Below are positions 340-17,197 of a stretch of 64,000 nt of DNA, piece by piece. Under the pieces are notes generated by a model. The model worked only from the letters and a program-made list of their open reading frames with translations, made no database searches and was not told the origin of the DNA. Source of the DNA: Vulcanimicrobiota bacterium (GTDB taxonomy: Bacteria; Vulcanimicrobiota; Vulcanimicrobiia; Vulcanimicrobiales; Vulcanimicrobiaceae); contig PLJL01000004.1 of assembly GCA_003140215.1 (NCBI GenBank), positions 880,661-944,660 on the forward strand. Direction: 5' to 3'. The stretch's first letter is position 1, and each line of letters opens with the position of its first letter. Made by a program: the position numbers and the translations under genes.

Positions 340-1848
340 ATGGTCTCTCCACGTGTGGTCACGGGTTCCATGCTCTACAATTTCTTGAAATGCGAGCACC
401 GTCCGTGGATGGACCTATATGGTGACGAGGAACTCCGTGACGACGCAAGCCCGTTCGTGGAAATGCTCTGGCGACATGCCAGATCGCACGAAGAGTTGGA
501 ACTCGCTAAGCTAGAAGGCACGTCTATCGATCGCACGCATTCCACTGCTGCGGAAAGAGAGCGTGCGACGCTGGAAGCAATGGATCGTCACGAACGCTTG
601 ATCCTTGGGGGCCGGATTACGAGCGACGATCTGGTCGGTGAGCCGGATTTACTGCGACTCGACGGCGACCGATACGTGCCTGGTGACGTCAAGTCCGGCG
701 CAGCGGACGAAGGCCCGAGCTCGGGTCAGCGAAAGCTCAAGGTGCACTACGCCGTGCAGCTCGCCCTCCACGTCGACGTCCTCGAACGTATAGGCCGTTC
801 CGCCGGCAGGCGTCCATTCGTGCTCGATGTGCGGGGTGATGAGGTCGTCTACGACCTGGGGGCTCCAAAGGGCCCGAAGATGCCGACGACGCTTTGGGAT
901 GACTATCTTGAGGCGTTGAGCTCTGTCCGCGCCATCCTTGCCGGTACAGCGTCCTCGGCACCGGCCTTGAGTGGTGACTGCAAGGAGTGCTGGTGGTTTC
1001 ACGCATGCACGGCCGAGCTCGAGCGTACGAATGACCTGACGCTGCTTCCCGAAGTCGGGCGCGGTCGCCGCCGCGTACTCTTCCCCTATGTAACAACCAT
1101 ACGCGAGCTCGCCGCCTCTGCCCCCGGTGACTTCCTAGACGAGAAAGGCAAAAGTATAATCAAAGGGGTGGGTGCCGACACCCTCGCGGCATACCGCGAT
1201 CGCGCGGTTCTTCGCGCCTCGGGCGGTAGTGCTTACCTAAAGGCTCCGCTGACGCCCAATCCGTGCGGAACGGAGCTCTTCTTCGATATCGAAACCTTCC
1301 GAGACCGGTGTTACCTGCACGGCTTTGTCGTGCGTATCAACCACGACTCCGTGACGGAGCGCTATGTTGGCTTCTTCATGGATCGAGATACGGCTGATGC
1401 GGAACGCGAGGCTTTCGCTCAGTCGTGGTCATTTGTGTGCTCGCAACGCCCATGTATCGTCTATATTTACTCAAAGTATGAGCGTACATGGTGGCGTGGG
1501 CTACAGCAGCGCTATCCAGATGTCTGCTCCGCTCAGGACATTGAAGGCCTGTTCGACCCGGACATCACGATAGATCTCTACGATGTTGTCTCGAAGCAAA
1601 GCGAGTGGCCGACCATGGATTATTCGCTAAAGACACTTGCGAAGCACCTTGGCTTCGGTTGGCGTGACACGCATCCGTCTGGCTCGGCATCGATCGAGTG
1701 GTACGACCGGCACCTACGAGGTGACGGGAGCGCGAAGCAACGTATTCTCGACTATAACGAAGATGACTGTCGTGCAATGCGGGTCTTGTTCGACGGCCTC
1801 CTTGACCTGCCGGTGCGTGCTGAAGGCCCGACGATGAGATCGATATAG
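340..1848 (+). CDS. TM0106-family RecB-like nuclease with RNase H-fold domain
   Basis: Predicted DNA nuclease of 502 aa. The N-terminal half has a PD-(D/E)xK (RecB/Cas4-like) core: E101-P-D103, then D117-V-K119 in GDVKSG. C18 in CEHRPW together with C214, C217 and C223 gives the one-plus-three cysteine layout that holds a 4Fe-4S cluster in Cas4/AddB-type nucleases. The C-terminal half looks like an RNase H-fold exonuclease (FDIET at 315-319, YNEDDC near 472-477). This two-domain layout matches the uncharacterised TM0106 family. It is the first gene of a four-gene run; the next gene starts 5 nt after its stop, so they are probably cotranscribed. The family assignment is firm, but its substrate and role here are inferred. 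A nuclease effector or processing role in anti-phage defence is plausible. Confidence 0.82.
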   Translation: MVSPRVVTGSMLYNFLKCEHRPWMDLYGDEELRDDASPFVEMLWRHARSHEELELAKLEGTSIDRTHSTAAERERATLEAMDRHERLILGGRITSDDLVGEPDLLRLDGDRYVPGDVKSGAADEGPSSGQRKLKVHYAVQLALHVDVLERIGRSAGRRPFVLDVRGDEVVYDLGAPKGPKMPTTLWDDYLEALSSVRAILAGTASSAPALSGDCKECWWFHACTAELERTNDLTLLPEVGRGRRRVLFPYVTTIRELAASAPGDFLDEKGKSIIKGVGADTLAAYRDRAVLRASGGSAYLKAPLTPNPCGTELFFDIETFRDRCYLHGFVVRINHDSVTERYVGFFMDRDTADAEREAFAQSWSFVCSQRPCIVYIYSKYERTWWRGLQQRYPDVCSAQDIEGLFDPDITIDLYDVVSKQSEWPTMDYSLKTLAKHLGFGWRDTHPSGSASIEWYDRHLRGDGSAKQRILDYNEDDCRAMRVLFDGLLDLPVRAEGPTMRSI

Positions 1849-1853
1849 CGACG

Positions 1854-3356
1854 GTGAGCCTCTTCGAGTCGCTCTGGCGTCTGCTCGGAGTGAGCGACGC
1901 GCACGCACTGTTTCGGTCGTCGCAGGACGAACGCGGTATCGTAGCGTCACCGTCGAAGCGTATCGGTGAACGTGCGGCGAGAGAAAGCTCAGGTGATCCA
2001 GTTCGCTCTACCGACTCGATCCCGCAGCGAGTGCCGCCAATAGCTACACCAGTGCGCAACGGAGTGTTGCGAGCGGCGGCCGATGGCTTTCCGCCTCTGC
2101 AATCGGGGCGTCTGCCTGCGGTTGAGATACCACCGTGCAAAATCTACTATCCATCTTACGCGCAGTTTACTCCCGAGCAGCAGCGCGCGTATGTGTATTG
2201 GCGACAAGAACTGCTGTCCGGCGTCATCATCGACGTGCCGCTAACGTACCGCTTCCTGTACGCATACGAGATCGGTTGTCGAAGCGCAAACTTGGTGGAG
2301 TTAGAGAAGCGCCTCGCATTTCTCCGGAACTCGTACCGTGCCGACGAGCATTTTGCGTCGTACATCGCTTCGTGGCTGGTGTCGGCACGTCTCTGGCGCC
2401 GCGACTTTACCTATGACGAGCTTATCGAGAGTGCACCCGATGTCCGGCTACGAGTGGATTTGGCGCTGCTGAACAACCGTTCGCCGAACGCCGATGACCT
2501 GGTGCACCTCGTGTACGGGCACGGACAGCGGGACCGGCTCGTGCAGGCGCTTCGGGTCGTACGCGCGGCGGAGCCTGCCGATGTCGTGGTGGCCGCCGCA
2601 GCTTCGACGGCGCCGCAACGCCGCGGCTACGTAGCGTTCGCCGGGTATCCGATCAACATCCGTGGCGTCGCATCGCGAGCTATCGATGTTCCGACCTACA
2701 CGAACACAGCACAGGATCCCGTCATGCTCGCGATCGCTCGGGTAATGGCGGCATCCGAGTTGCTCATCGGAGATCTTCTCAGCCCTGCGGATCGCGAGTT
2801 GCAATTCGTTCAGCATACCGGCACCGGCTCGGCAATTCCGATTCGCCGTAACGCCACAGCGACGGTGTTGCCGGTATTACCGCCTAGCGATACGGTCGAA
2901 GGTCTGTGCCTATCCAGTAAGGGGCTCTGGGATGTGGACATGCGCATAACGATGGTGCTCGTGTTGTGGCAAGCTGACATCAAGCCATATATCGAGGGTG
3001 AGATAGCGCTTTCTCGGGATCTTCGGAAGAAACATGAAGCATTCACTGCCGCGCTCGGCATTGACGGCGGGATAGGTGCACTCCGCCGCGGCTTCTTTTA
3101 TCTCACCCGGGGCCTCAGAGCGCCCTGGCGACTCGACGTGGAGGCACCTGTGGCGGCAGACCTTCGCATGGGTACTGCGTGCGCACGCTTCACCACCGAA
3201 CTGCAGCACCAGCTTCGTGGCTCCGCAGCGCGTGCGCGCATTCTTGCCGACTTGATTGAGCAGATCGCACAGGATACCCGCAAGTCACGTTCCGAGATCG
3301 TCGCCGCGCTCGTCGCAGGAACCGGGGCCGAGCCACCGCTCGGGGTCCAGGCGTGA
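1854..3356 (+). CDS. TerB N-terminal-domain protein
   Basis: GTG start 5 nt after the nuclease stop; 500 aa. The first ~90 residues are low-complexity and probably flexible. From about residue 95 (PCKIYYPSY, TPEQQRAYVYWRQ) the protein matches the TerB-N domain pattern, through a helical region rich in paired aromatics and arginines to about 300. The remaining ~200 residues include a helical C-terminus (RARILADLIEQI) that could be TerB-C-like. TerB-N/TerB-C proteins have been linked by genome context to ATPase-helicase-nuclease DNA-processing modules as well as to tellurite resistance operons. The absence of terC/terD-like genes and the presence of an ATPase, helicase and nuclease here favour the DNA-processing type. 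Its biochemical activity is unknown. Confidence 0.7.
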   Translation: MSLFESLWRLLGVSDAHALFRSSQDERGIVASPSKRIGERAARESSGDPVRSTDSIPQRVPPIATPVRNGVLRAAADGFPPLQSGRLPAVEIPPCKIYYPSYAQFTPEQQRAYVYWRQELLSGVIIDVPLTYRFLYAYEIGCRSANLVELEKRLAFLRNSYRADEHFASYIASWLVSARLWRRDFTYDELIESAPDVRLRVDLALLNNRSPNADDLVHLVYGHGQRDRLVQALRVVRAAEPADVVVAAAASTAPQRRGYVAFAGYPINIRGVASRAIDVPTYTNTAQDPVMLAIARVMAASELLIGDLLSPADRELQFVQHTGTGSAIPIRRNATATVLPVLPPSDTVEGLCLSSKGLWDVDMRITMVLVLWQADIKPYIEGEIALSRDLRKKHEAFTAALGIDGGIGALRRGFFYLTRGLRAPWRLDVEAPVAADLRMGTACARFTTELQHQLRGSAARARILADLIEQIAQDTRKSRSEIVAALVAGTGAEPPLGVQA

Positions 3357-3402
3357 GGTCTGATTGGCTACCTCGGGGCTGCCCGTACGGTAAGAGTTCA
3401 CC

Positions 3403-4632
3403 GTGAATGCAGAACTAAGCATCATCAAGGCGCTGAAGATCGGAAAAGTACCTCTGATCGGTGCTACTCGTCTATGCGTTGGACGCGACGGCGAGGTCGC
3501 GGAGTTTGGTCGTATCTTGGATTTCGTGGCAGACGGCGGCTTCGAGACGCGCTTCCTGCGTGGCGACTACGGAAGCGGTAAGACGTTCATGTGTGCCGTT
3601 CTCAGGGAACTCGCATTTTCACGTGACTATGCGGTATCGGTAGTCAACCTCAGCCGCGAGGTGCCGTTCGGGCGGCGGGATCTGGTGCTGGGCGAAATCG
3701 TTCGAGGGTTGCGCACGCCGGGCTCGGGTGCCTCGTGCGCCCTCCCCGAACTGATCGAGCGCTGGTTCGCGAAGTACCATCCGGGCACGCCTCTGACGGA
3801 GAATCCTGCCTTACGTGAAGCGATCGCGCGGATTGCCAACGCTGACGCCGGCATGGGCGTTGGCCTCCGTTCTTACTACGGGGCATACTGCGACGGAAAT
3901 GATCTACTTATGGATGGTGCGCTTTCGTGGCTTCGCGGCGAGACCATCGAAGCCGACGTGCGCAAGGCGTTACGGCTTGTCGGGAAGCTCACCCCAGAAG
4001 CCGCGTTCCGCCGCCTTCGCAGCATCGTAGCGCTTCTCAAAGACGGCGGTGCTCCCGGACTCGTCGTACTCGTCGATGAAGCGGAGGCGATCTACCGTTT
4101 GGCGCAGGCGCCGCAGCGCCTGGCTGCATACACTGCCATCCGCGAGATCATCGACATCGGTGATGTCGAGTTCCCGAGCGCGTTCATTCTCTTCGCCGGG
4201 ACGGCCGAATTGTTCGAGAACGAGTTCCGCGGCATCGCGTCGTATTCCGCGCTTTATCAACGCATCCGCTCTCAGCAGGTCAGCAGCCAGCGCGACCTAC
4301 GTCAGCCAATCATCCGGCTCGAGGAGCTTGGCGGCGAAGCCTTGCTGCAGATTTCACGTCGCGTTCGTGAAATTCATGGACATGCATACGACTACGATGC
4401 AGGCGGACGTTTTGGCGACGCGGAGCTCCAGCAATTCATGACGGCTGCGGCGACCAAGTTTGGCGACATTCGATCGAAGCCACGAGGCTATCTTAAGGCG
4501 CTCGTAGATGCCCTCGACGCCCGACAACAAGATCTCGATGTGGCCGCAGTGTTAGAACAATCAGGCGATCACGTTCAACGGATCGAGCACACGGACGCCA
4601 CGCTCGATGACGTAGTGCTCGCCGAAGTATAG
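3403..4632 (+). CDS. brxD-like: BrxD-like ATP-binding protein (DUF2791)
   Basis: P-loop ATPase of 409 aa with a GTG start. Walker A is GDYGSGKT (residues 54-61) and Walker B ends in VVLVDEAEAI (D225, E226). The N-terminus (IIKALKIGKVPLIGA) and the arrangement of the ATPase core match the DUF2791/BrxD family, which in BREX type 2-like systems sits next to the helicase BrxHI. The same pairing is kept here: the helicase ATG follows this stop with one base between them. None of the BREX core genes (pglX methylase, pglZ phosphatase, brxC/pglY ATPase) is in the window. The ATPase therefore probably works with the flanking helicase, TerB protein and nuclease. Probably cytoplasmic. Confidence 0.8.
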   Translation: MNAELSIIKALKIGKVPLIGATRLCVGRDGEVAEFGRILDFVADGGFETRFLRGDYGSGKTFMCAVLRELAFSRDYAVSVVNLSREVPFGRRDLVLGEIVRGLRTPGSGASCALPELIERWFAKYHPGTPLTENPALREAIARIANADAGMGVGLRSYYGAYCDGNDLLMDGALSWLRGETIEADVRKALRLVGKLTPEAAFRRLRSIVALLKDGGAPGLVVLVDEAEAIYRLAQAPQRLAAYTAIREIIDIGDVEFPSAFILFAGTAELFENEFRGIASYSALYQRIRSQQVSSQRDLRQPIIRLEELGGEALLQISRRVREIHGHAYDYDAGGRFGDAELQQFMTAAATKFGDIRSKPRGYLKALVDALDARQQDLDVAAVLEQSGDHVQRIEHTDATLDDVVLAEV

Positions 4633-4633
4633 A

Positions 4634-6823
4634 ATGTCGATCGGTCCATCTGATGGTCAAGATCCATACTCGACTCTCAGTGAAGGCGTGCGTCGGTGGA
4701 TCGACGACCACGGATGGACCGCGTGGAGCGGGATCCAGGCACGCGCTATTGTTCCTATTCAGGCCGGCCGCGGCGCATTACTCGTGGCACCGACAGCGTC
4801 GGGCAAGACAGAAGCCGCGCTCCTGCCACTGGTGTCACGGATCGTTCAAGATCATGCGTCGCCGATCGCATTGCTGTACGTTGCTCCGTTGCGTGCGCTG
4901 ATCAACGATCAAGTGCGTCGCGCCTATCGCCTCCTCGAAGAGAACGGCCTGACGGTTGAATGGTGGCACAGTGACCTCTCGGCCTCGCGTCGCCGCTCCA
5001 TTCTGCGTCGGCCCCCACACGCTCTTTTGACAACGCCGGAGTCCTTGGACGTAATGCTTTCGTCGGACGCGTACGGCCATGGTGCACTCCTCGGCAATGT
5101 CCGCTATGTTCTCATCGACGAGGTCCACGCGTTCGTCGAGGACGACCGTGGCGCCCAGCTGGTCTCTGTACTCGCGCGCCTGGAATCGACGATGGACCGG
5201 GCGCTGCAACGCGTCGCGTTGAGCGCGACCATTGCGAGTCCAGCAGCCGTTGCCACGTGGCTCTCGTCGGCGCGTTCAGATGCGACGAGCCTCGAGCCGA
5301 TCGTCGACTATGGAGCGCGCGGCCGGCGTCTGGCAGTGGGCCTAATCCCGGAAGTTCGCCGCCCGGACCTCTCGCAAGGGCAGCGTGCGACGGAGGATCT
5401 CACCCGGTTGGTGGCTGTTCTTGAGAAGCATGTGGCCGGCCGGCGAGCGATTGTCTTTACAACGTCGCGCGCCGACGCTGAAAACGTGACCGCAAAGCTG
5501 CATGAGCGGGGCATCGAAACGTACATCCATCACGGGTCCGTGGACAAGGACGTGCGAGCCGTGACGGAGGCCGCGTTCCGTGAAGGCGGTCCGCGAACGA
5601 TTGTCGCGACGTCGAGTCTGGAACTTGGAATTGATATCGGTGATCTCGAACTCGTCGTGCAAATCGGCTCACCGGGAAGCGCCCTTTCGCTGCTGCAGCG
5701 GGTGGGTCGCTCGGGTCGTCGTGGCGACGCCTCGTCTGTTGGTATCGTGTACGCAACGTCCGAGGAGGAGCTGCCGGTCGCTCTCGCCGTGACCGACCTT
5801 GCATTGGACGGAATTGTCGAAGAGGCGTATCCGGACGATATGGTATTGCAGGTTCTGTTTCAGCAGGTGATCCAGTTCGTGCGAGAACGTGGTTCCATGA
5901 CCGCTGCCCAGATAGAACTGACTCTCCTGGGCGCCGGCGCTTTCCGAGGTGTCTCCCAGGAGGCTTTCTTCGACCTTATCAACGAGCAAGTAGCTGGCGG
6001 CTTTCTGGAGGTCGAGCGCGGCGATATGCTGGTGATCGGCCCGGAGACCGAGCGGCGGTTCGGTTATGCAAATTACCGTGACTTCTATGCCCTCTTCGAA
6101 GCGGACGCCGGCTGGATGGTTCGTCACGCTGCCCAACGGATCGGCACGCTGGACCGCGCGTATCCGATTCCATCTGGCCGCGAAGTAACATTCGTCCTCG
6201 CGGGCCGACGTTGGCGCGTTATCCATGCGGACCGGGAGCGGATGGTCCTCGATGTCGAGCCGACCGGCTCCGGCGCGATTCCACGATGGTCAGGGGAGGG
6301 CGGAGACACGTCTTTCGAGGTGATGCAGCGCGCACGCACGATCCTGACCGGTGAAGCGCCGAGCTCCCTCGAGTCCGCCACGCTTCGCGCTTACATGGAT
6401 CGTGAGCGGGGGCGAGTCCAGAAGGACGGCCTCGCACCGGGCATTATCCCGGTTCGCTTGACGAAGAGCGGGGCGCGTGCGGCGACGTACGGGGGTAACG
6501 CGCTGAACCGCTACCTGGCGGCGCTGTGTGCGGCGGCAATGAACGGCGTATCAATTGGCGCGCATGCGGCTGATGTGCAGTGCGCGACATCTGCAGATGT
6601 CGCAGCTCAAGCACTTGAGCGTATCCTCGGCGATGCAGACCTACGCGCCACCCTTCGCGCGACCGCCCTCGAGACTGCGCCGCCGCTGGGGATCGGCCGT
6701 CATTGGCCGCACCTCGGCCCCAAAACCCGGCGCCATTTGTTACGGCACAGCCTCGACCGAGGCGAGGTCCTTCTCGCACGCCTTCGATACGACGCGATCG
6801 TCGTCGCGGGCAGTGCGCACTGA
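4634..6823 (+). CDS. brxHI-like: DEAD/DEAH-box helicase, BrxHI/Lhr-like
   Basis: Superfamily 2 helicase of 729 aa. Visible motifs are I (APTASGKTE, 52-60), II (DEVH, 162-165), III (SAT, 197-199) and VI (QRVGRSGRRG, 355-364). The LGIDIGDLELVVQIGSPGS stretch before motif VI is typical of the Lhr/BrxHI branch. A long C-terminal region (~370-729) resembles the winged-helix and Lhr-extension part. It is last in the four-gene module and one base from the ATPase stop, so translational coupling is likely. Expected activity is ATP-driven 3'-5' translocation or unwinding on DNA or DNA/RNA hybrids; the assignment to defence rests on neighbours. The next gene is on the opposite strand, which ends the operon. 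Confidence 0.85.
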   Translation: MSIGPSDGQDPYSTLSEGVRRWIDDHGWTAWSGIQARAIVPIQAGRGALLVAPTASGKTEAALLPLVSRIVQDHASPIALLYVAPLRALINDQVRRAYRLLEENGLTVEWWHSDLSASRRRSILRRPPHALLTTPESLDVMLSSDAYGHGALLGNVRYVLIDEVHAFVEDDRGAQLVSVLARLESTMDRALQRVALSATIASPAAVATWLSSARSDATSLEPIVDYGARGRRLAVGLIPEVRRPDLSQGQRATEDLTRLVAVLEKHVAGRRAIVFTTSRADAENVTAKLHERGIETYIHHGSVDKDVRAVTEAAFREGGPRTIVATSSLELGIDIGDLELVVQIGSPGSALSLLQRVGRSGRRGDASSVGIVYATSEEELPVALAVTDLALDGIVEEAYPDDMVLQVLFQQVIQFVRERGSMTAAQIELTLLGAGAFRGVSQEAFFDLINEQVAGGFLEVERGDMLVIGPETERRFGYANYRDFYALFEADAGWMVRHAAQRIGTLDRAYPIPSGREVTFVLAGRRWRVIHADRERMVLDVEPTGSGAIPRWSGEGGDTSFEVMQRARTILTGEAPSSLESATLRAYMDRERGRVQKDGLAPGIIPVRLTKSGARAATYGGNALNRYLAALCAAAMNGVSIGAHAADVQCATSADVAAQALERILGDADLRATLRATALETAPPLGIGRHWPHLGPKTRRHLLRHSLDRGEVLLARLRYDAIVVAGSAH

Positions 6824-6850
6824 CGTCCGCGCAGAGCGACGGACCGACGC

Positions 6851-7171
6851 TTAGAACTTCTTCACGAACAGCAAGATGCGAGTGACGTGAGGCTGGTCTT
6901 CGTCGAGGTCTTGAAGCATCGAGAATGAATCGAATCCTATGAAATTGTCGGCAGATACAACGTGTTCCATTGCTCCCAGCATGCGCCCGCCCGCGTCGTA
7001 GAGATTCGCGACCACCTCAAGGTCGGCGTCCAAGGTGCGCTCTGACCGAAGTTCACCATTGACGTATATGTACTCACCGTCTCCGTATGCGTATAGACCG
7101 GCAAGACTGACGCCGAAACGCTGCTCAACGATAGGGAGACGTTCGATGAATGACGTCATATCTTCACGCAT
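6851..7171 (-). CDS. small hypothetical protein
   Basis: 106 aa, not recognised. It is acidic, and alternating beta-like stretches (EYIYVNGELRSE, ADLEVVANLYDAGG) suggest a small beta-sandwich reminiscent of FxLYD-type domains. There is no signal peptide, membrane segment or cysteine. It converges with the helicase gene, whose stop is 27 nt from its own stop. A second possible start is M5 (7159), preceded by GTGAAG. Whether it belongs to the defence module is unclear, as it is on the other strand. Confidence 0.5.
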   Translation of the reverse strand: MREDMTSFIERLPIVEQRFGVSLAGLYAYGDGEYIYVNGELRSERTLDADLEVVANLYDAGGRMLGAMEHVVSADNFIGFDSFSMLQDLDEDQPHVTRILLFVKKF

Positions 7172-7267
7172 GTTTCGATCCCGACGTTTCTACAGCGATT
7201 GATGCGACCTTTTTAAAGGGATTGGCTCTTCGTAGTCTCACCGCGGATCCTGAATCCCAATGTAGGA

Positions 7268-8002
7268 TTATTGAGGCCGCCGTCCCACGACGACCAGCAA
7301 ATCGTGTTGTCCGTCGTCACGCAGGACCGTAATCTTCAGTTGGGAGCCCGGTTCAACCGATGAAATCAGGGTGAGCGCCTCGGCAACCGTCGCAACATGT
7401 TGGTCGTCGACTTTCTGAATGATATCGCCTTGCATCATCCCCGCCGCGCGGGCTGGGCCAGAGGGGATCAAGAGGTGTGCGACAACGCCTTGCGGCGTTT
7501 GATCCATTTGCACGCCAATCCATCCGCTGCCACTAAGCGCAGCGGCCGCACGAACCGCATTTGCCGCAGCCGCTGCCGGCGTCCATTCGGAGCCGTCCTT
7601 AAAATGCACGGCATCGACCGAGCAACGTAGTTTCGCTGGAGCGAATAGCGGCGAAGCGTAGATATTGCCGCCGCGCCTCTTGAAGACGTGTGTAATCGTA
7701 ACTCCAGGCGCAAAGCTTCCAGCATCGCGAATCGCGAGTGATTCGGTACCGAAGTCAATACGGAATCGGATCAAGTCCGCTGCTACATGCCCTTCGTTAG
7801 TGAACACTACTTTGAACCGACGATCGCTTTCTGAAATAAGCGCGCCACCGGTACCACCCGCGACGCAGTCTTCTATTTGGACCGGTGGACCCGACGGCGG
7901 ACCATTTCCCGCGTTCGGAATTCCGAGGGGAGTTTGCGCGAGAGCTTCGCTAGAAGCAGTGGCGACGAGACCGGCGATGATCATTGCGGGCACCCGAAGC
8001 AT
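7268..8002 (-). CDS. secreted PDZ-domain protein
   Basis: The start is placed at the ATG at 8002, which has an AGAGGAA ribosome-binding site 2-6 nt upstream and gives a good signal peptide (MLRVPAMIIAGLVATASSEA, cut near ALAQ). An upstream in-frame start at 8056 would put a non-hydrophobic leader before it. The mature protein (~220 aa) has a beta-rich middle region with two cysteines (C46, C127) that could form a disulfide. A C-terminal PDZ domain (about 160-240) includes GWIGVQM and the carboxylate-binding-loop-like AAGMMQGDIIQKVDD. No protease catalytic domain is present, so it is probably an envelope adaptor or substrate-binding protein. Partner unknown. Confidence 0.7.
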   Translation of the reverse strand: MLRVPAMIIAGLVATASSEALAQTPLGIPNAGNGPPSGPPVQIEDCVAGGTGGALISESDRRFKVVFTNEGHVAADLIRFRIDFGTESLAIRDAGSFAPGVTITHVFKRRGGNIYASPLFAPAKLRCSVDAVHFKDGSEWTPAAAAANAVRAAAALSGSGWIGVQMDQTPQGVVAHLLIPSGPARAAGMMQGDIIQKVDDQHVATVAEALTLISSVEPGSQLKITVLRDDGQHDLLVVVGRRPQ

Positions 8003-8362
8003 CGTTCCTCTTGCTTCGCAAGACAAGAGCTCGGTCCTGGCGGCGCTGCGGCTCAATCCCCAGCCCGAATTGGGTCAAATCATCGCGCGGCCGCTCGGGG
8101 ATCGCCACGGCGTCCGAAGCGCATCGGCCGACGGGGGGCCATAGGACCGGTCTCTTCGTCTTGCCGCCGAGGCCGTAACGGGGTGTTAACGCCGGCCGAA
8201 AAGTGACCCACCTTCGAGCACGCCCGACGGCTTAAAAACACGGGCGACGACCCCAAAACGCATAGGTGATCCGCTTCGCTGCCTGAGAGCCGAAATATCA
8301 CCCAACGACGATCTCATCGAGCTTGTTGGGCGCAGCGAAGGCCCGCACCCGTTGCAAGCGCG
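8003..8362. other. intergenic gap
   Basis: About 360 bases between two minus-strand genes. It should hold the promoter of the PDZ protein gene and the 3' untranslated region of the PIN gene. No reading frame has protein-like composition, and I see no clear repeat or terminator. Confidence 0.4.
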
Positions 8363-9703
8363 TCACTGCGCCTCTTCGTCGTCACCGGCCTCGTTCGGAA
8401 GCATCTCCTTGGCGATCTCATCGGTCGGTAACAATTCACTGAGCATTTCGCCGATCGCTTCGTCGAGCGACGTCTGCCTAAGCCGTACCAGCAACGACCC
8501 GGTTTTCACGCCCATCCCATTGCTCGCGCGAATCTCATAGCCGATGCTAAACGCTGGCGGAATCTGATGAATTTCCAACGTTACCGCGTCGAGCGTCACG
8601 GAGCGGCGTTGGCGTACCATCGGTTCACCGTATGATACGAGACCCGTGACTCGAAGGCTTGGTCCCCAGCTGGTGATCTGTACCGGCTGGGCCGTTGTCA
8701 GGTACGGCAACGTGAACTTCGGCGGGGAGGCCGCGGACAGCGCTGCCGCGAGTCGCCACGGCGCATTAGGATTGCCGGCCAACACTATGCGACTCGGCTT
8801 ACGTGGAAGGCCCGGCTTCTCAGGCCTCCGCTCGGGCGCTCGAACGAACGGAGGGAGTTTCAGATCCGCCCTGACGTTCGTCGCCTCGACGTCCGCATCG
8901 TTCGTCAATTTAAACGCGAGGTGCACCAGCGCTCCGTGGCGACGCCAAAGGTCGGGCAGGGCCAGTCGCACCTTATCGACGTACGATGCGAGCTTCTCGT
9001 CATAGCGAGGATCGTCACGCCAGATTCCGCCCATGAAATTGACCGCGTCGAGATCGCGCTCAGGCTTCCCGACAGTGGCCGCGATGCGCTCGACCGCGTC
9101 AGGCGATAGCGTCGGAAATACTTGGCATTCGATTTCGTTGCTACCGTCCAGGAACACGAGATCCAGGTTTGGGTGCGCGTTCTCAAACTCAGCGACGCGT
9201 GCTCGAAGATGACGATTTTCACGTTCGACTTCGTCGACTTCTTCAGCCGCTTGGATGTCGACCGTCGGCACGGCAAGGCGGATGCCCCGCCGTCTCGCCT
9301 TGAGACGCATACCGATGTCGAGCGTGAGAAGAACGACGTCGGCTTCTGGGCGCTCGCGACCGAACGTCATCACTTCGGCCTGGATTATGTCATCGTTCTT
9401 CGCGGGGTCGAAGCCTTCATCGGCGTATCGGATCGGTACGGCGGGCTTAAAGAACTCGACGACGGCACTAGAACTCGCTGGCCCTTCCTGGTCCTCCAGA
9501 CGGCTCAGCGCGGATCGGGCGCGGCGCTTGATGCGGTTGTTGGTGTGATGCGTCTTCTCGTCGAGTTCATCCACCACGCTATCGACCAAGAGCCAGCTAA
9601 ACGGGCGGTCGAGCCCTAGTATCGATGGCGTGACCTCTTCGAGCGGCTTGCCATGCAACAGGAAGTTGGTGTCCGGCGTTACGTACAAGGGACGGCTTTC
9701 CAC
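8363..9703 (-). CDS. PIN-domain protein with C-terminal extension
   Basis: 446 aa from a GTG start preceded by GAGAG. The N-terminal ~150 residues form a PIN-like nuclease domain with the acidic set in place: D11 (TPDTNFLL), E46 (VVDELDEK), D104/D105 (KNDDIIQAE) and D129 (LLTLDIGMRL). PIN domains are metal-dependent ribonucleases, usually toxins or RNA-processing enzymes. A short coiled-coil-like linker (150-180) joins it to about 265 extra residues of beta-rich sequence that I do not recognise; small VapC toxins lack this part. No VapB-like antitoxin gene is adjacent. Its position among defence-type genes suggests an effector, but a housekeeping RNA-decay role cannot be excluded. Confidence 0.72.
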   Translation of the reverse strand: MESRPLYVTPDTNFLLHGKPLEEVTPSILGLDRPFSWLLVDSVVDELDEKTHHTNNRIKRRARSALSRLEDQEGPASSSAVVEFFKPAVPIRYADEGFDPAKNDDIIQAEVMTFGRERPEADVVLLTLDIGMRLKARRRGIRLAVPTVDIQAAEEVDEVERENRHLRARVAEFENAHPNLDLVFLDGSNEIECQVFPTLSPDAVERIAATVGKPERDLDAVNFMGGIWRDDPRYDEKLASYVDKVRLALPDLWRRHGALVHLAFKLTNDADVEATNVRADLKLPPFVRAPERRPEKPGLPRKPSRIVLAGNPNAPWRLAAALSAASPPKFTLPYLTTAQPVQITSWGPSLRVTGLVSYGEPMVRQRRSVTLDAVTLEIHQIPPAFSIGYEIRASNGMGVKTGSLLVRLRQTSLDEAIGEMLSELLPTDEIAKEMLPNEAGDDEEAQ

Positions 9704-9842
9704 GGTCTCTCATCATTCGGCGCCAACCACTAGAAGACCTAAGATCAGGTCGATAGGTGGGCAGTGACCGACAGGCCCTTGATTGCTATTGCAACTCTAT
9801 ATGCCCGCGCACTCGCGGCAAGTCTCGCTGATGCAGGATCGA

Positions 9843-10475
9843 CTAGTCTAATTCGTGGGTGCCGAACTTGGGGACGACGTCCTCTTCCGCAATCCATGGC
9901 GTCCCGAAGAGCTCACGGATGTCGAACTCTGTCGGGCCCTTGTACACTTCATCCGGTAACGGTCCGTCGAGGATCGTCGTGTACTTGACGCCGACATCGA
10001 GCATCACGTCGAGGGCTTCGTCGCGGCCGGCAAACGCTTCCCAGAGCGGTCCCGGTGGCCGCGGATCAACGTGGGCATAAATCCTGTCCGCAACATCGTT
10101 CACTGGCTTCACGGCGGCTTCAAGACGTTGTAGGTCGGCTAGCACCTCTGCGTGTGGTGGCAGTGCGGGAAGCATTTCTGCGGCTATTGCCGGCCACGCG
10201 GCGATGTCTTTTAGAAGGCCGATCAGCGAAACACCGCCAGCTGTCTCGGATGCCTTAGTAATGCGTCGGATTAATAGGGCCTTGTACTCTTCATAGACGT
10301 GGATGATGCTTTGAACCATTGCCCCGCCGTCCTCGCTGGAGAGCCCGCGATGCTGCCCCATCGCCCAATAGAGCGCGGCTTGGTAGCGACGAAACTCTCT
10401 TGCATCAACGATCTCGTACCGCAGATGGCGACCGCGCCGCCCCCACTTTGTAGCTTTGTCATGCTTCATGCTCAT
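9843..10475 (-). CDS. hypothetical protein, HEPN/AbiU2-like candidate
   Basis: 210 aa, predominantly helical. The layout resembles AbiU2-type HEPN proteins: a long helical N-terminal half (GQHRGLSSEDGGAMVQSI, SLIGLLKDI), then a central R-x3-H motif (ADRIYAHVD, residues ~131-139), then an acidic helical tail. In HEPN ribonucleases the signature is R-x4-6-H, so the spacing here is slightly off and the call is tentative. It has no signal peptide or transmembrane segment and no strong ribosome-binding site at the chosen ATG. It lies between the PIN protein and the 2TM effector candidate, which fits a defence cluster. Confidence 0.45.
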   Translation of the reverse strand: MSMKHDKATKWGRRGRHLRYEIVDAREFRRYQAALYWAMGQHRGLSSEDGGAMVQSIIHVYEEYKALLIRRITKASETAGGVSLIGLLKDIAAWPAIAAEMLPALPPHAEVLADLQRLEAAVKPVNDVADRIYAHVDPRPPGPLWEAFAGRDEALDVMLDVGVKYTTILDGPLPDEVYKGPTEFDIRELFGTPWIAEEDVVPKFGTHELD

Positions 10476-10517
10476 GTGTTTCAGCCGACCCCTGATACGC
10501 AGAGAGGCGTCGAGGAC

Positions 10518-10676
10518 CTACGGCCGCGTTCCGCCGCCGAACGCGTGGTGGTGCGAGTCCCGCAGCGCCTCGTCCGTCGACGATCCGAGCGCGTGGCGGT
10601 CATCCCCGATCGACGGGTTTGACGACAGGAACAGGATGGGAGCGACGGTGATCTCGCCGATCCACGGCAGACCACG
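10518..10676 (-). pseudogene. fragment of an uncharacterised protein
   Basis: A short stretch with coding character: PWIGEITVAPILFLSSNPSI, then DDRHALGSSTDEALRDSHHH, ending at a stop. The WIGxIxxAPxLxLSSNPS pattern looks like the N-terminus of a conserved family of unknown function, but the reading frame is not continued on either side and no good start codon precedes it. Probably a truncated relic; a short genuine gene is less likely. Confidence 0.3.
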
Positions 10677-10762
10677 CCGCGCTTTGCGCGACGGTCTAAC
10701 GACACAGCATGACCGCTCGCGCATCGCAGTCCTGTGCGACCACGCCGAAACGGATTCGGGAA

Positions 10763-11461
10763 TCACGAATCAACCCGGCGTAGAGTCGCTTCGCCGATAA
10801 AAAGGACGGCATCGTTTTCGCGTACGCAATCGTACCAGTGGTTTCTCATGACCCGCGGTCTGCCGTGAATCGCTGTGCCGCTTGCCGGCGGGTCCCATTC
10901 GGTGACCGTAAAACTATCGACACCGTAGCCCTCGCTGCGTAGCGTCTTTAGAGCGGGGTCGGGCATCTCGTCGACTTTGTATGCGGCATAGATTTGCTTG
11001 CCGCCTTCACTGATGGCGGCGGACAACCAGCTCCAGCCACCCAAATCGGCATGGCTCACCGTCGACACAAGTCTTCCAGAATTCAAGCTTATCCAAAACG
11101 GCGTCTGTTCGACCGTTATATCGCCCTTTAATGACGGCGGCAGCGGCTCGTGTGGCAGCAGTCTGAACGCCTGGAGGAACCGGCCCTCAAATTTCCACCT
11201 GCCCGAGAAGTCGAGATCGGGACGAGTCTCTCGCCAGATGGACGTTTCGTAGTTGCGAATTCGGATTTTCGCCAGCCATGCCGCGCTTGGAATTGAGAAC
11301 AAAACCAGGATGATCGCAAGCTGGCCAAGCCCTTTGCTGAGGTGCTCATTCACGGCGAGAACGAGCCCGGCCGCGATAATTGCGATCCAGGTCTGAAGCT
11401 TGCAAACGAAGTCGATGTTGTCCCGTACGGCTTTACCGTAGCCTTCGATCAGGGTCTTCAT
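10763..11461 (-). CDS. two-TM, beta-rich protein, Cap15/S-2TMbeta-like candidate
   Basis: The ATG at 11461 is preferred over an upstream GTG at 11473 because AGGTG lies 9 nt before it; 232 aa. Two hydrophobic helices (about 25-38 and 45-66) are followed by ~160 residues of alternating beta strands that begin with LDFSGRWKFEGRF. This layout, two membrane helices plus a beta-barrel opening with a DxxGxW-type strand, is that of the SMODS-associated 2TM-beta effectors (Cap15-like) of CBASS systems, which disrupt the inner membrane on cyclic-nucleotide binding. No CD-NTase gene is visible nearby, so it is an orphan if the assignment holds. An unrelated small membrane protein is the alternative. 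Confidence 0.5.
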   Translation of the reverse strand: MKTLIEGYGKAVRDNIDFVCKLQTWIAIIAAGLVLAVNEHLSKGLGQLAIILVLFSIPSAAWLAKIRIRNYETSIWRETRPDLDFSGRWKFEGRFLQAFRLLPHEPLPPSLKGDITVEQTPFWISLNSGRLVSTVSHADLGGWSWLSAAISEGGKQIYAAYKVDEMPDPALKTLRSEGYGVDSFTVTEWDPPASGTAIHGRPRVMRNHWYDCVRENDAVLFIGEATLRRVDS

Positions 11462-11630
11462 ACGGATGCACACCTGTGGCCATTTTGTAAATGCTGGCTT
11501 GGCTCGAAATTCAAGCGAGGCTTGGGGATTGGTGCGGTCAGGCGTTCTTCCTCCTCACCATTGGGATTCAAACGTCACTCGGACGCAGGTCAGTAGCCAG
11601 GATCCTCGTCGCTCGGCTCGTACGGCCCGA

Positions 11631-11789
11631 TCATCTAGCGAAGGGGCCAGTTCCCCACCCGATGAACCGCCGCAGCTGATCCGGCGCGCATTGTTTGGCG
11701 AGCATTTGCGCGAACATGTACGCGATATGATCGTCGAGCGCGTGCTCCGGCCAGTCGAGGCCTCCCGCCCGCGCCTTCATCGTGTTCAT
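11631..11789 (-). CDS. possible small protein, unknown
   Basis: 52 aa from the ATG at 11789 (MNTMKARAGGLDWPEHALDD...). The end (CAPDQLRRFIGWGTGPFAR) has tryptophans, acidic pairs and amphipathic spacing that look like real protein, but no family is recognised. It might be a C-terminal remnant of something larger. Confidence 0.25.
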   Translation of the reverse strand: MNTMKARAGGLDWPEHALDDHIAYMFAQMLAKQCAPDQLRRFIGWGTGPFAR

Positions 11790-11921
11790 GAGCAGAACAT
11801 GTTTTTTATCGGCGGCTCCAATCGGCCGGCTGCTGCTGTGGAGGTGACGCCCGGCCCGGGCCGCATCGTCCGAGAGTCGAAGCCCGAACCCGGCTCTCGA
11901 CATCGGCGCTCGCCGATCGGG

Positions 11922-12167
11922 CTATCCCGACCGTACAGTCGGCAGCTTCTTTTTCCCGGCCGCGAGCATCGCGCACATATGTTCGATTCGACTTTTCCAC
12001 GCCTCGCGTGCTTTTGCGGCGTAGATCCAGTCGATGAAGTCCCGGCGCGCGTCCGGCGTCAGGCCCCTCCATCCGGCCTTCGCCGGCGGTGCCACCTTGA
12101 GAGCGTTGTGCAGATCGAGCGGCACGACTGCGTAACAGCAAGGCCGTCGCTTTCCGGCCGTCAACAT
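11922..12167 (-). CDS. YdeI/OmpD-associated C-terminal domain, short or truncated
   Basis: 81 aa. The segment VPLDLHNALKVAP ... LTPDARRDFIDWIYAAK ... RIEHMCAMLAAGKK follows the pattern of the C-terminal domain of YdeI/OmpD-associated proteins (DL..AL...P, L.P..R..(Y/F)..WI..AK....R..RI......L..GK). Full-length members are about twice as long with an N-terminal DUF1905-type or YdeI domain, absent here, so this is either a stand-alone domain or a truncated relic. Its ATG overlaps the ATG of the divergent gene at 12166 within the same CATG. Confidence 0.5.
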   Translation of the reverse strand: MLTAGKRRPCCYAVVPLDLHNALKVAPPAKAGWRGLTPDARRDFIDWIYAAKAREAWKSRIEHMCAMLAAGKKKLPTVRSG

Positions 12168-12969
12168 GTCGCACGCCGTCGCCGTTCTGCATGAAATAAA
12201 GCGGGTACATGAAGCGCGTTGCTTCGCGGAGCTGCGCGCACCATCGGGCAATACCCTGGCCGAGTCTGACCTGATCGCGATCGGGCCGGATATCGTAGCC
12301 TTCGGAAGCCTCAAGGAGTTGGACGACGCCACCTGGCTGCTGGAATTGCAGCATTTTGTCATTGGCGATAGGCAGGCTCTTGTCGACTTCATTAGCACGT
12401 TCGAGCAGTGCCGCGAAGACGATCGGTACGTACTTCTGAACGAATTGGGCGATGGTCGGTTGCTGCGATCGGCGCCCGCCCTAGTCCGTAAAGAACGCGG
12501 ATATGAAGTGCGATGCGAAGTCCAGGCGCCATTTGCTCGAGTCAATGCGGCAAACTTGGGTACTGACATCGCGCTCTCACTAGATGGTGATCTCGTGCTC
12601 GAAAACGGTGACTTAGCTACGGTATCCGGACTCGCCGCGCTAGAACAAAAAATTCGCCTTCAGCTATCACTTCAGCGAGGCGATGACAGGTTTCATCCAA
12701 GATTTGGAGCGCGGCTGGTGGAGTACTACCAAGCCTTTCGCGGCTCGCCCTGGTTAGAGAGCCTTCTCAAGCTCGATGTGGTTCGCCTCGCTGCTATTCC
12801 CTATACCGACAGTACTTCTGCGCAAGCTTTTACGCCCTTGCAATGCGTAAATCGCGTTGGCAAGATTGGCGTGGACGATGACGACATGTCGCACGTCCTC
12901 ACGATCCATGTCGAACTCGATGTTGAGGGCGTCGGGTCAAGAGGGCAAACGGTGACGATTAGGCTCTAG
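12166..12969 (+). CDS. orphan gp25/gpW-like domain protein
   Basis: 267 aa. The C-terminal part (about 130-215) has the hallmarks of the T4 gp25/P2 gpW baseplate family: LGTDIALSLDGDLVLENGDL, then a helix with ALEQKIRLQLSLQRGDDRF, then RFGARLVEY. Family members are ~110-130 aa and open with a similar (D/N)I-x6-G-D strand; in gp25 a conserved E-P-R motif docks into the sheath, but I do not see that motif here. The first ~120 residues are an unrecognised mixed alpha/beta region, so this is an extended version. No sheath, tube, spike or baseplate genes are nearby. It may be a domesticated or defence-linked derivative or a relic of a contractile injection system. Confidence 0.55.
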   Translation: MSHAVAVLHEIKRVHEARCFAELRAPSGNTLAESDLIAIGPDIVAFGSLKELDDATWLLELQHFVIGDRQALVDFISTFEQCREDDRYVLLNELGDGRLLRSAPALVRKERGYEVRCEVQAPFARVNAANLGTDIALSLDGDLVLENGDLATVSGLAALEQKIRLQLSLQRGDDRFHPRFGARLVEYYQAFRGSPWLESLLKLDVVRLAAIPYTDSTSAQAFTPLQCVNRVGKIGVDDDDMSHVLTIHVELDVEGVGSRGQTVTIRL

Positions 12970-13055
12970 GTTGCAAGAGTAAGCAACTCGAATGGTCCAG
13001 TCCGACCGTTTCGACGTGCGGACGCGCGCCACCGTGGTCTTCTTCGAAGGCGGAA

Positions 13056-13865
13056 TTATTGCCCTACGCGCGGCTCAGGAATCCAGATCGCTGCGTCCCC
13101 GTCGTCATCCGGAAACGGCCGGGCCGTACCGTCGAGGAAACACGCTCCCGCCCACGCGCAGACAACGGCGTCGATCGCATCCTCGTACGGTTTCAGTCTG
13201 GCCGCCGAGCGAATCGAACTTCGTTCAGGAAAGTCGATCCCGATTGCGCCGACTTCTCGCACGAGCGCCTCGCAGATTGAGCCCCAATTCTCTAACAGTC
13301 GATCGATCCGCTCGCGGACGGTTCCTGGCCATCCGTAGCGCGCAATCTTTGAAACCTTATAGGCCGGACGTCGCCCAGCACGTAAGAGGCGAACGAGGGC
13401 GGCGAGGGGATAGACTTCGACGAGTGCCGGCAATTTCGACCTCGTCGTCGCAAGTTCGTAGCCCGCCGCTTCAAGGGCTCGCACCATGCCGGTGACGGGC
13501 TTGTCCGGACGATACGCACTCGGACTGTGCACGGCTGCCCCGAACGCTCCAAATGCTCGTGAAACCGCTCTATCGGCATTGCGCCGCCCGACTATGGGCC
13601 GTCGGGACATGGGCACATCGACGGCAACGACATCAATGGGTTCGCCTCCGAGCACCGTAGCCGCAGCCAGGAGGTCCGGAACTATCGGTATGCCGCTTGG
13701 CGTCTGCCTCCACTCGGCCGGCTCGCCGCGCGCAAGTCCAATGAAGCCCGCGTAGGATGGCGCAACCGCAATGACCTTCCGGCCGACCTCGTCGACGCGG
13801 AGCAAGGCCAAAGCGCTCGAGCCGTGTTCCGTCCATGCGGCGTCGATCCCGAGAACTAGAGCCAT
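13056..13865 (-). CDS. DUF429 family protein (RNase H-like fold)
   Basis: 269 aa, ATG preceded by AAGGGCAC. GIDAAW near the N-terminus (residues 6-11), VVAVDVPMS in the middle and the C-terminal segment YEDAIDAVVCAW are the conserved acidic motifs of DUF429, a family predicted to have an RNase H-like fold and nuclease activity. The central RRNADRAVSRAFG and the VEVYPLAAL motif also fit. Length is normal for the family. The gene stands alone between the gp25-like gene and a repeat-rich gap. Its role is unknown. Confidence 0.78.
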   Translation of the reverse strand: MALVLGIDAAWTEHGSSALALLRVDEVGRKVIAVAPSYAGFIGLARGEPAEWRQTPSGIPIVPDLLAAATVLGGEPIDVVAVDVPMSRRPIVGRRNADRAVSRAFGAFGAAVHSPSAYRPDKPVTGMVRALEAAGYELATTRSKLPALVEVYPLAALVRLLRAGRRPAYKVSKIARYGWPGTVRERIDRLLENWGSICEALVREVGAIGIDFPERSSIRSAARLKPYEDAIDAVVCAWAGACFLDGTARPFPDDDGDAAIWIPEPRVGQ

Positions 13866-14062
13866 TGTGCCCTTTTTCCATTGGCTCGCGGGCGCGTTCC
13901 CCCGCTCGGGCGCCGTCTCGCGGCGGCAGGATCAATTTATGCCGGCGTTTGCCCGCGCGGCCCTCGCGGGCGCTGGCAAGCCGCCCGACTCGTCCGGAGC
14001 GGTCGGGCACGGCCCCACCGGCGACCGGCCGCGGATTCGGCTTGGCATCCTATCGCAAACGG

Positions 14063-14157
14063 GATTCAATGTGAAATGATGGCGACAACCCCCGATTCAT
14101 TGTGAAATGGAGACCCCAATGCCGATTCAATGTGAAATGGCGATTCATTGTGAGACA
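14063..14157 (+). repeat. four direct repeats of GATTCANTGTGAAATG
   Basis: Copies start at 14063, 14094, 14124 and 14142. The unit is GATTCA(A/T)TGTGAAATG(G), and the last copy diverges after GATTCATTGTGA. Position 7 alternates A,T,A,T. Spacing is 31, 30 and 18 bases. Such clustered short repeats are typical of transposase-binding ends of IS21-like elements or of regulator-binding arrays. No transposase gene is present beside them, so a solo IS end is the working guess. Confidence 0.55.
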
Positions 14158-14182
14158 GCGCCGTTTTGAAAGGCAGTAAACT

Positions 14183-14304
14183 CGTTAAGTTAAGACAGCC
14201 TCAAACGAGACGAGAAAACTCAAGCCAGGACCGGGATTCTCCGCAAGACGAGGGCCGTGCATCGCGCAGCCCTCGTTCTTTCGTTCGGCTGACTTAACTT
14301 AACG
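14183..14304. repeat. 122-bp element with 18-bp inverted ends (MITE-like)
   Basis: Left end CGTTAAGTTAAGACAGCC (14183-14200) and right end GGCTGACTTAACTTAACG (14287-14304) are inverted copies with one mismatch. The interior contains a terminator-type hairpin. No coding capacity. The size and structure are those of a miniature inverted-repeat element; no clear target-site duplication is seen. Alternatively, the ends are paired operator sites for the downstream DNA-binding protein. Confidence 0.5.
14248..14283 (+). terminator. Rho-independent terminator-like hairpin
   Basis: ACGAGGGC (14248-14255) pairs with GCCCTCGT (14269-14276) across a 13-nt loop and is followed by TCTTTCG. The stem is GC-rich and the T-run weak. 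It sits inside the inverted-repeat element and upstream of the promoter of the next gene, so it could insulate that gene. Confidence 0.55.
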
Positions 14305-14310
14305 GCTCAC

Positions 14311-14340
14311 TTACATCTTGGGCTGTGCCGATGGTATAAT
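14311..14340 (+). promoter_or_regulatory. promoter of the repeat-domain DNA-binding gene
   Basis: TTACAT (14311-14316), an 18-bp spacer and a perfect TATAAT (14335-14340). The expected transcription start (about 14347) is only ~2 nt before the ATG at 14349, so the message would be essentially leaderless. Confidence 0.6.
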
Positions 14341-14348
14341 TCACAGCA

Positions 14349-15539
14349 ATGGTTGAGCCCACGACGACCCAAGAGGATGGACGGCTGTTCCGAGTCCGCG
14401 TCTGTCGCATGGCGGGGCGCCTCCTCGTGAGGCTCGAGGAGATGTATCCGCTGCCCCCGTTGGTTCGCGTGTATGAAATGCCGAATCGGCCGAAATTGAA
14501 ACGGTGGACGGGAGACCGGTCCGCTCTCTTCGGAGGCCCCATTGCAACCGGCATTCTCGCGAGCATTGGCGTTCTCGGCTGGACATTCGAACGGCTTTGC
14601 GTGGCGGTCGCCGTCGGCTACGATCGCGTGGTCGTCAAAAAGGCGCTTCGGATGCTTGAGGTGCAGGGCATTCTCGCGGGCGACAGGCCCCGCGGCCCGG
14701 GCTTCAATATCCGGCTTGTTACGGTTGCGCGTACGTTTCCGGCGTGTGATGAATTGAATGGCCTGCTGCAGGCCTATGCCTATGCGTGGCCCGATGTGGC
14801 TGACAGAACGCGGCAGGCAATTGAGCATGCTACTTCGCGGACGAAGGAACATCTTCGCCGGCGCGACGTCAGAACAGCAGAGCCCGATCAGTGGAGCGAG
14901 CTCGAATCACCACGTCGGCGACCGGTCCGCGATGGCCGTCAGCAATGTCTTAGTCGGTACTACGCACTCAATCGGAAAGCGGGACGAGTACTGTCTAGCT
15001 CGGATCTCCTGCGAACCGATTCTAACCTGTATCGCAGCATACGAGCGAATTGGGGCCCGTTTCGTGCCTTCCGTGAAGAAGCGGGTCTCGAGCCGGTTTT
15101 AACGGGCCGGACCGAACATCCAAATCCGATATTGCGCAGCGAATGTGTAGCGGAGTACTTCGCGCTGCGTAATCGTGTCGGCTTCTTGCCAAACACGACG
15201 GACCTCAATCGGCTGAACGCATGGTTGGGGGAAAGAATCCGAATTCAGTGGGGCGGGTTCGCGGCGTTTTGCGACGATTTGAAGACGTATCCTGCCCGTC
15301 GACATCGAAGTTCAAGGACAGACGAGACGACAAAACGTGAGATGTGCCGACAAGAATATCGTTCGCTGATGCGGCTCCTTGAACACCCACCGTCTAGCTG
15401 GGAATTACGTTTGCATACTGACGGACTCTATAAGCGAATCAAGAAATCGTGGAATAGCTTTGAGTCGTTCTGCGATGATATCGGTATCACACCGCCGCGA
15501 CGACGCCGCGCTGCCAGCGCGCAAGGACGCGCGCGCTAG
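14349..15539 (+). CDS. DNA-binding protein: winged helix plus three homing-endonuclease-associated repeats
   Basis: 396 aa. Residues ~60-125 look like a winged-helix reader (GPIATGILASIGVLGWTF ... VVVKKALRMLEVQGILAGD). The second half holds three ~50-residue repeats at 200-249, 266-315 and 333-382. Each runs C-x2-(E/R)Y-x2-L ... L-x-R/I-x5-W-x2-F-x2-F-x(D/E)(D/E)-x4-P, the pattern of the homing-endonuclease-associated repeat (PF18780-like) that helps such enzymes bind DNA. No HNH, LAGLIDADG or GIY-YIG nuclease motif is visible, so this looks like a pure DNA binder, perhaps a regulator of the adjacent repeats. A basic tail (PPRRRRAASAQGRAR) follows. The strong promoter and near-leaderless start are noted separately. 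Confidence 0.6.
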   Translation: MVEPTTTQEDGRLFRVRVCRMAGRLLVRLEEMYPLPPLVRVYEMPNRPKLKRWTGDRSALFGGPIATGILASIGVLGWTFERLCVAVAVGYDRVVVKKALRMLEVQGILAGDRPRGPGFNIRLVTVARTFPACDELNGLLQAYAYAWPDVADRTRQAIEHATSRTKEHLRRRDVRTAEPDQWSELESPRRRPVRDGRQQCLSRYYALNRKAGRVLSSSDLLRTDSNLYRSIRANWGPFRAFREEAGLEPVLTGRTEHPNPILRSECVAEYFALRNRVGFLPNTTDLNRLNAWLGERIRIQWGGFAAFCDDLKTYPARRHRSSRTDETTKREMCRQEYRSLMRLLEHPPSSWELRLHTDGLYKRIKKSWNSFESFCDDIGITPPRRRRAASAQGRAR

Positions 15540-17123: not shown

Positions 17124-17197
17124 AACGACTCGAACGGTTGGTGAGTCCGAAAACTGAGCTGGCAGACCGCCCGCCGGGGATGAATCGCACGCTGTTG

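What the first reader, a model, noticed from the sequence alone, without database searches (positions are those of the whole stretch)
340..6823. Four-gene nuclease-TerB-BrxD-BrxHI module outside a BREX context
A RecB-like nuclease, a TerB-N protein, a BrxD-type ATPase and a BrxHI/Lhr helicase are packed with gaps of 5, 46 and 1 nt. BrxD and BrxHI are known BREX partners, and TerB-N proteins have been linked to DNA-processing modules, but the BREX methylase, phosphatase and BrxC/PglY are absent. This suggests a stand-alone defence system that shares parts with BREX. Its function as a unit is inference.
Basis: partly seen in the sequence, partly recalled or inferred. Interest (0 to 1): 0.78.

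Follow-up and report, generated by a model that had tools for sequence, protein, structure and literature searches.

The report
Divergent Shango-like module beside Cas4-like nuclease
A bacterium carries a three-gene cluster built like a known phage-defence system called Shango, next to a DNA-cutting enzyme whose relatives turn up beside other defence genes; it looks like a divergent relative of something known rather than a new four-gene machine.

Summary
The four genes are real and at the stated coordinates. BREX core genes were not found: no PglZ and a single BrxC/BrxD-family gene in the 86.7%-complete genome. Yet this is not ordinary Shango. Its ATPase and helicase form their own clade, apart from canonical Shango and BREX-like rows, and its SngA-like protein matches only part of TerB_N, with no detectable TerB or TerB_C. 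These three genes sit together in 4 of 149 genomes of the phylum. The nuclease is not a conserved member: adjacent in 1 of 4 such loci and 0 of 15 canonical Shango loci. Its close orthologues lie near other defence genes, and in a congener one is fused to a DUF499-like ATPase region. It is a Cas4-like nuclease plus DEDDy exonuclease with intact motifs. Verdict: new variant of a known kind. Phage defence is inferred, not shown.

The parts
340..1848 (+). TM0106-family nuclease: N-terminal Cas4/RecB-like PD-(D/E)xK domain with four cysteines, C-terminal DEDDy (DnaQ/RNase_H_2) exonuclease domain; neighbour, not a conserved member of the module
   Evidence: TIGR03491 196.3 bits against 97.45; D103, C214, C217, C223, D316, E318, D412, Y472, D476 the same in all 16 aligned rows; model pLDDT 89.9, best PDB matches Cas4
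1854..3356 (+). SngA-like protein with a partial TerB_N match; conserved part from about 2064-2130 on, start codon uncertain
   Evidence: PADLOC SngA 8.6e-15, Pfam TerB_N 2.3e-8 over residues 98-140; 25-33% identical to four homologues
3403..4632 (+). BrxD/SngB-like AAA+ ATPase; Walker A GDYGSGKT at aa 54-61, Walker B VVLVDE at aa 221-226
   Evidence: BrxC_BrxD 3.4e-79; PADLOC BrxD 1.3e-58, SngB 1.4e-47; motifs; 59-64% identical to three relatives
4634..6823 (+). BrxHI/SngC (Lhr-like) SF2 helicase; Walker A APTASGKT at aa 52-59, DEVH at 162-165, QRVGRSGR at 355-362
   Evidence: PADLOC BrxHI 1e-150, SngC 3.4e-129; DEAD and Helicase_C; motifs

Best explanation
Genes 2-4 (1854-6823) are a divergent, horizontally acquired relative of the Shango anti-phage system. 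Proposed mechanism: the AAA+ ATPase loads or switches the Lhr-type helicase on aberrant or replicating invader DNA, and the TerB_N protein is the sensor or scaffold that confines this to infected cells. The nuclease next door is a separately mobile accessory effector (Cas4-like nuclease plus a 3'-5' exonuclease) that in this genome can degrade DNA opened by the helicase; the core does not depend on it, since 3 of 4 related loci lack it. Shown here: gene content, intact motifs, three-gene conservation, separate clade, nuclease not conserved, unusual composition. Inferred: defence, helicase loading, TerB_N as sensor, any cooperation with the nuclease.
For: PADLOC SngA, SngB and SngC all match in the order A-B-C, and four plasmid Shango loci have that order. 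The same three genes lie together in G000, G087, G072 and G109, four genera of one family, and the module was not found in 10 congeners. ATPase and helicase each form one clade with these relatives, SH-aLRT 99. Third-position GC 0.62-0.69 in the module against a mean of 0.876 in 22 upstream genes. Catalytic motifs intact. Published: Shango inhibits phages (PMC10250203); SngC, BrxHI, DruE and DpdJ may form a defence-helicase clade (PMC12278908); BrxD is proposed to load or activate BrxHI (PMC12839542).
Against: No phage data. Genes 3 and 4 score higher with BrxD/BrxHI models than with SngB/SngC. TerB and TerB_C were not detected. The trees are unrooted with long branches. Of 10 further window proteins scanned with PADLOC, one matched, a candidate family only, so the module does not sit in a dense island of known defence genes. 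The composition of much of the rest of the window is also below that of the upstream flank, so foreign composition is not special to the module.
Confidence: 0.55

Rival explanations
1. A true four-component system: the nuclease is the dedicated effector of this Shango-like core and the first gene of its operon.
For: Same strand, 5-nt gap if the GTG at 1854 is used; a close orthologue (58%) is fused to a DUF499-like ATPase region in congener G120, so physical coupling of this nuclease to a defence-type ATPase exists.
Against: Absent from 3 of 4 variant loci and from 15 of 15 canonical Shango loci; genome-level overlap is compatible with chance; the conserved part of gene 2 starts some 200 nt further down; no promoter or terminator evidence either way.
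Confidence: 0.15
2. Simply Shango, diverged so far that TerB and TerB_C escape profile searches; the nuclease is a bystander.
For: Gene order and TerB_N as in Shango; L018, scored as canonical here, also lacks a TerB match; detection limits of profile searches.
Against: ATPase and helicase lie outside the canonical Shango clade; profile-profile comparison with canonical SngA aligns only 48 columns; canonical SngA in the same phylum is found easily.
Confidence: 0.13
3. A DNA-repair or replication-stress module rather than anti-phage defence.
For: Lhr-like helicases and Cas4/DEDDy-type nucleases also act in repair (recalled); the G109 copy lies beside a weakly HerA-like gene, a gene read by eye as Mre11-like, and an SbcC/Rad50-like gene.
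Against: Patchy: 4 of 149 genomes, none of 10 congeners; unlike-host composition; the nearest named models are defence systems.
Confidence: 0.12
4. A remnant of a type 2 BREX system: the BrxD-BrxHI pair left behind.
For: Best PADLOC models for genes 3 and 4 are BrxD and BrxHI; the pair is a tightly linked dyad in type 2 BREX (PMC12839542).
Against: Own clade outside 19 BREX-like rows in both trees; the TerB_N gene accompanies the pair in all 4 loci; no PglZ in the genome.
Confidence: 0.05

Closest known systems
Shango (SngA TerB protein, SngB ATPase, SngC helicase)
   Same: Gene order and families of genes 2-4; TerB_N in the first protein; works without BREX core genes
   Different: No detectable TerB or TerB_C (against 84); ATPase and helicase in a separate clade; nuclease neighbour not seen at 15 canonical loci
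Type 2 BREX BrxD-BrxHI dyad
   Same: ATPase followed directly by helicase; best-scoring PADLOC models
   Different: No PglZ, no further BrxC/BrxD gene; a TerB_N gene in place of the BREX core; separate clade
DUF499-centred BREX-related / Hma-type systems
   Same: A close orthologue of the window's nuclease is fused to an AAA/DUF499 region in congener G120, near HmaA- and HmaB-like matches
   Different: Different ATPase, helicase and a methylase; the window has none of these
TM0106 RecB-like nucleases (TIGR03491)
   Same: Over the curated cut-off; same motifs
   Different: Here a short stand-alone protein of 502 aa, 24-27% identical to the family's long members in related genomes, most of which lie in open frames of about 1,100-1,250 aa

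Membership tests
Shango | Three adjacent genes: TerB-domain protein, ATPase, DEAD/DEAH helicase, in that order | tested here: met
   same order in four annotated plasmid loci
Shango | SngA with TerB_N, TerB and TerB_C domains | tested here: not met
   Only part of TerB_N; of 4 canonical SngA scanned, 4 have TerB_N and TerB_C, 3 have TerB
Shango | ATPase and helicase inside the SngB and SngC clades | tested here: not met
   Separate clade in both trees, SH-aLRT 99; quick, unrooted trees
Shango | Anti-phage activity | not testable with these tools
   Needs plating assays
BREX (type 2) | PglZ present | tested here: not met
   No match in the genome, 86.7% complete; by contrast 9 of 12 BREX-like comparison loci carry one inside the fetched stretch
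BREX (type 2) | BrxC/PglY ATPase besides BrxD | tested here: not met
   One BrxC/BrxD-family gene in the genome
BREX (type 2) | BREX methylase PglX/BrxX | not tested
   Not searched for in the genome
TIGR03491 TM0106 RecB-like nuclease | Score over the curated cut-off | tested here: met
   196.3 bits against 97.45
TIGR03491 TM0106 RecB-like nuclease | Intact nuclease and exonuclease motifs | tested here: met
   motif names recalled

The most novel reading that the evidence does not exclude
The short TM0106 nuclease of this bacterial family is an exchangeable effector plugged into different ATPase/helicase defence modules: beside a Shango-like core here, fused to a DUF499-like ATPase region in a congener, and near Druantia, type II restriction and AbiE genes elsewhere. 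The Shango-like core is itself a third lineage of TerB_N-AAA+-Lhr systems, beside Shango and BREX.
Probability: 0.25. Interest if true: 0.6.

Novelty: new variant of a known kind. Interest (0 to 1): 0.4.

Why it matters
Shango's mechanism is listed as unknown in a 2026 review (PMC12926258, passage). A lineage that keeps part of TerB_N but shows no TerB or TerB_C would point to the part of SngA that matters. It also ties Shango and BREX together through a shared ATPase-helicase pair, and the nuclease is a concrete candidate effector to test.

Tried and rejected
Shared integration site: the G087 copy lies near genes read by eye as rpsR, rplI and dnaB, and rpsF and ssb (by eye) lie upstream of the window; but tblastn with the G087 flank genes found nothing in 40 kb upstream, the window, or 60 kb downstream. 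No tRNA was found in the window or those flanks.

Phage or plasmid carriage: the nuclease and the ATPase variant were not found in viral contigs by pattern-based scans, the nuclease not in phage records, the SngA-like protein not in plasmids. Plasmid matches of the nuclease (24 records) are diverged family members, 28% identity or less.

A prophage around the module: one protein (12166-12966) matches phage baseplate families, but nine other flank proteins gave no phage structural match.

Structure of the SngA-like protein: pLDDT 56, not used; no fold search of it was run.

Rows dropped before counts: L140 and L141 (weak SngA matches without Shango genes) and L132/L133 (shorter copies of L134/L135) from the 15 canonical loci; L048 (same contig as L014) from the trees, where 19 of the BREX-like loci and 7 of the methanogen loci were used. 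Several canonical loci are short (7-10 kb), so a more distant nuclease would be missed; L019 shows no SngB and in L018 SngA and SngB are 5.5 kb apart.

Papers: PMC10250203, PMC10952713, PMC12458937, PMC12278908 and PMC12926258 by passages; PMC12839542 by abstract, outline and passages; all other titles as search listings. The searches listed no title that I recognised as describing this variant or this nuclease beside Shango; only open-licence papers are held, and most listed papers were not opened.

Full report
What is there. The window is G000:C4:880661-944660 of a 3.88 Mb assembly, 86.7% complete. The same-family contig G072:C137 (16,975 bases, L014) corresponds in length and genes to L048, whose record is titled Candidatus Eremiobacterota, so the host is inferred to belong to that phylum.

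Not BREX. No PglZ was found in the genome, and the only BrxC/BrxD-family gene is the one in the window; the BREX methylase was not searched for. As a contrast, of 12 bacterial BrxD-BrxHI loci checked, 9 have a PglZ match inside the fetched stretch, each confirmed by an open frame of the listed length at the expected place; L081, L098 and L116 have none.

PADLOC gives SngA 8.6e-15, SngB 1.4e-47 and SngC 3.4e-129 for genes 2, 3 and 4; BrxD (1.3e-58) and BrxHI (1e-150) score higher for genes 3 and 4. Shango, a three-gene TerB, ATPase and helicase system, lowered plating 10- to 100-fold for many, not all, phages tested in P. aeruginosa (PMC10250203, passages). Four plasmid-borne relatives show the same order: TerB N-terminal domain protein, ATP-binding protein, DEAD/DEAH box helicase.

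How it differs from Shango. In trees of 38 ATPases and 29 helicases the window and three relatives (G087, G072, G109) form one clade (SH-aLRT 99), outside the canonical Shango rows (8 and 6) and the BREX-like rows (19 in each); the trees are quick and unrooted with long branches, so whether the variant is nearer to Shango or to BREX is open. Of 4 canonical SngA proteins scanned, all have TerB_N and TerB_C and 3 have TerB. Of 5 variant proteins, 4 match TerB_N and none matches TerB or TerB_C, even at E up to 1; in the window only 43 residues match, and a profile-profile comparison with canonical SngA aligns 48 columns. A failed defining feature bars filing it as Shango; it is built like Shango and most likely works like it.

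The three genes are a unit. In 149 genomes of the phylum the SngA-like variant occurs in 4, each of another genus (G109 has two copies, one at either end of its module), with ATPase and helicase beside it each time. Within the window's family the strong BrxC/BrxD-family matches (over 260 bits) are these four; the others there score 18.8-23.6 bits. None was found in 10 congeners, though only the first 10 candidates per genome were scored. Third-position GC is 0.62-0.69 in the module and averages 0.876 (0.716-0.924) in 22 genes upstream. This points to horizontal acquisition, with the caution that overall GC stays low through much of the window.

The nuclease is not part of the unit. It is adjacent in the window only: 1 of 4 variant loci, 0 of 15 loci with a canonical SngA, several of them short. 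Close orthologues (about 51-59% identical) lie in G051, G120, G089 and G114 (the last cut by its contig end), with short fragments in G033, G097 and at a second place in G000. Surroundings: AbiEii and RmuC genes within about 6 kb in G051; in G120 one 1418-aa frame that joins the nuclease to an AAA/DUF499 region (DUF499 at 23.2 bits, cut-off 23), near an HmaB-like match to the model's C-terminal part and an HmaA/BrxHI-like helicase cut by the stretch; an AIPR gene and a type II methylase-restriction enzyme pair in G089; DruE- and DruL-like genes in G114; SIR2/STALD and ThsB-TIR genes for the G000 fragment; genes read by eye as recR, ybaB and dnaX for G033 and G097. In the phylum the overlap of nuclease and module at genome level is compatible with chance (P = 0.18 with 7 nuclease genomes, 0.13 with 5).

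What the nuclease is. TIGR03491 at 196.3 bits. In 16 aligned sequences D103, C214, C217, C223, D316, E318, D412, Y472 and D476 are the same; C18 is found in 15 (one gap) and H50 in 15. D116-x-K118 is shared by the four close rows; the distant rows show a DxK motif displaced by gaps. The model (pLDDT 89.9) matches Cas4 structures best (E 2.9e-5 and 8.7e-5) and, above E 0.001, MGME1, Dna2 and DnaQ/RNase T-type exonucleases. The reading as a cysteine-bearing Cas4-like nuclease plus a DEDDy 3'-5' exonuclease rests on motif and fold; the motif names are recalled.

Mechanism (inferred). The ATPase loads or activates the helicase on invader DNA, as proposed for BrxD and BrxHI (PMC12839542, passages); the TerB_N protein senses or tethers; degradation is done by the neighbouring nuclease here and by other nucleases elsewhere. 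SngC, BrxHI, DruE and DpdJ are reported as a potentially distinct clade of defence helicases (PMC12278908, passage). Walker, DEVH and motif VI sequences are intact.

Weak points. No phage data; one genome carries the four-gene layout; the start of gene 2 is uncertain; promoter- and terminator-like sites (2 and 4) are no more than in shuffled sequence; of 10 further window proteins scanned with PADLOC one matched, a candidate family.

Score. A divergent relative of a known system with a nuclease neighbour that keeps varied company: new variant of a known kind, interest 0.4.

Noticed in passing
L042:6706-10959 (G120, a congener): The nuclease's orthologue is fused in one 1418-aa frame to an AAA/DUF499 region, near HmaA- and HmaB-like matches.
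   Followed up: partly
L015 (G109) 4020-17521: The variant module has a second SngA-like gene after the helicase and lies beside a weakly HerA-like gene, a gene read by eye as Mre11-like and an SbcC/Rad50-like gene; plasmid Shango locus L131 also has SbcD and SMC genes just upstream.
   Followed up: partly
SngA proteins of L128, L130, L131, L134, L137, L138, L139 and L015: A hydrophobic stretch (19-residue Kyte-Doolittle mean of at least 1.9) near the N-terminus in 7 of 13 canonical SngA examined and in 1 of 5 variants, not in the window: some SngA may be membrane-anchored.
   Followed up: partly
window 12166-12969 (+): Protein matching phage baseplate families (best named tail match 2.7e-8) with no other phage structural gene recognised among nine flank proteins: possible prophage remnant.
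   Followed up: partly
window 13056-13865 (-): DUF429 protein matching the PADLOC candidate family PDC-S44 (1.9e-24); no link to the module shown.
   Followed up: no
L047 (G000:C4:1777000-1796900), fragment at 9589-9945: A second, fragmentary copy of the nuclease in the same genome, a few kb from SIR2/STALD and ThsB-TIR genes that look like a Thoeris-type neighbourhood.
   Followed up: partly
L050, L056, L089 and other Methanomicrobiales loci: BrxD-like ATPases without a BrxHI-like gene nearby in most methanogen loci fetched; they form their own clade. Of three genomes searched for PglZ, one had a weak match.
   Followed up: no
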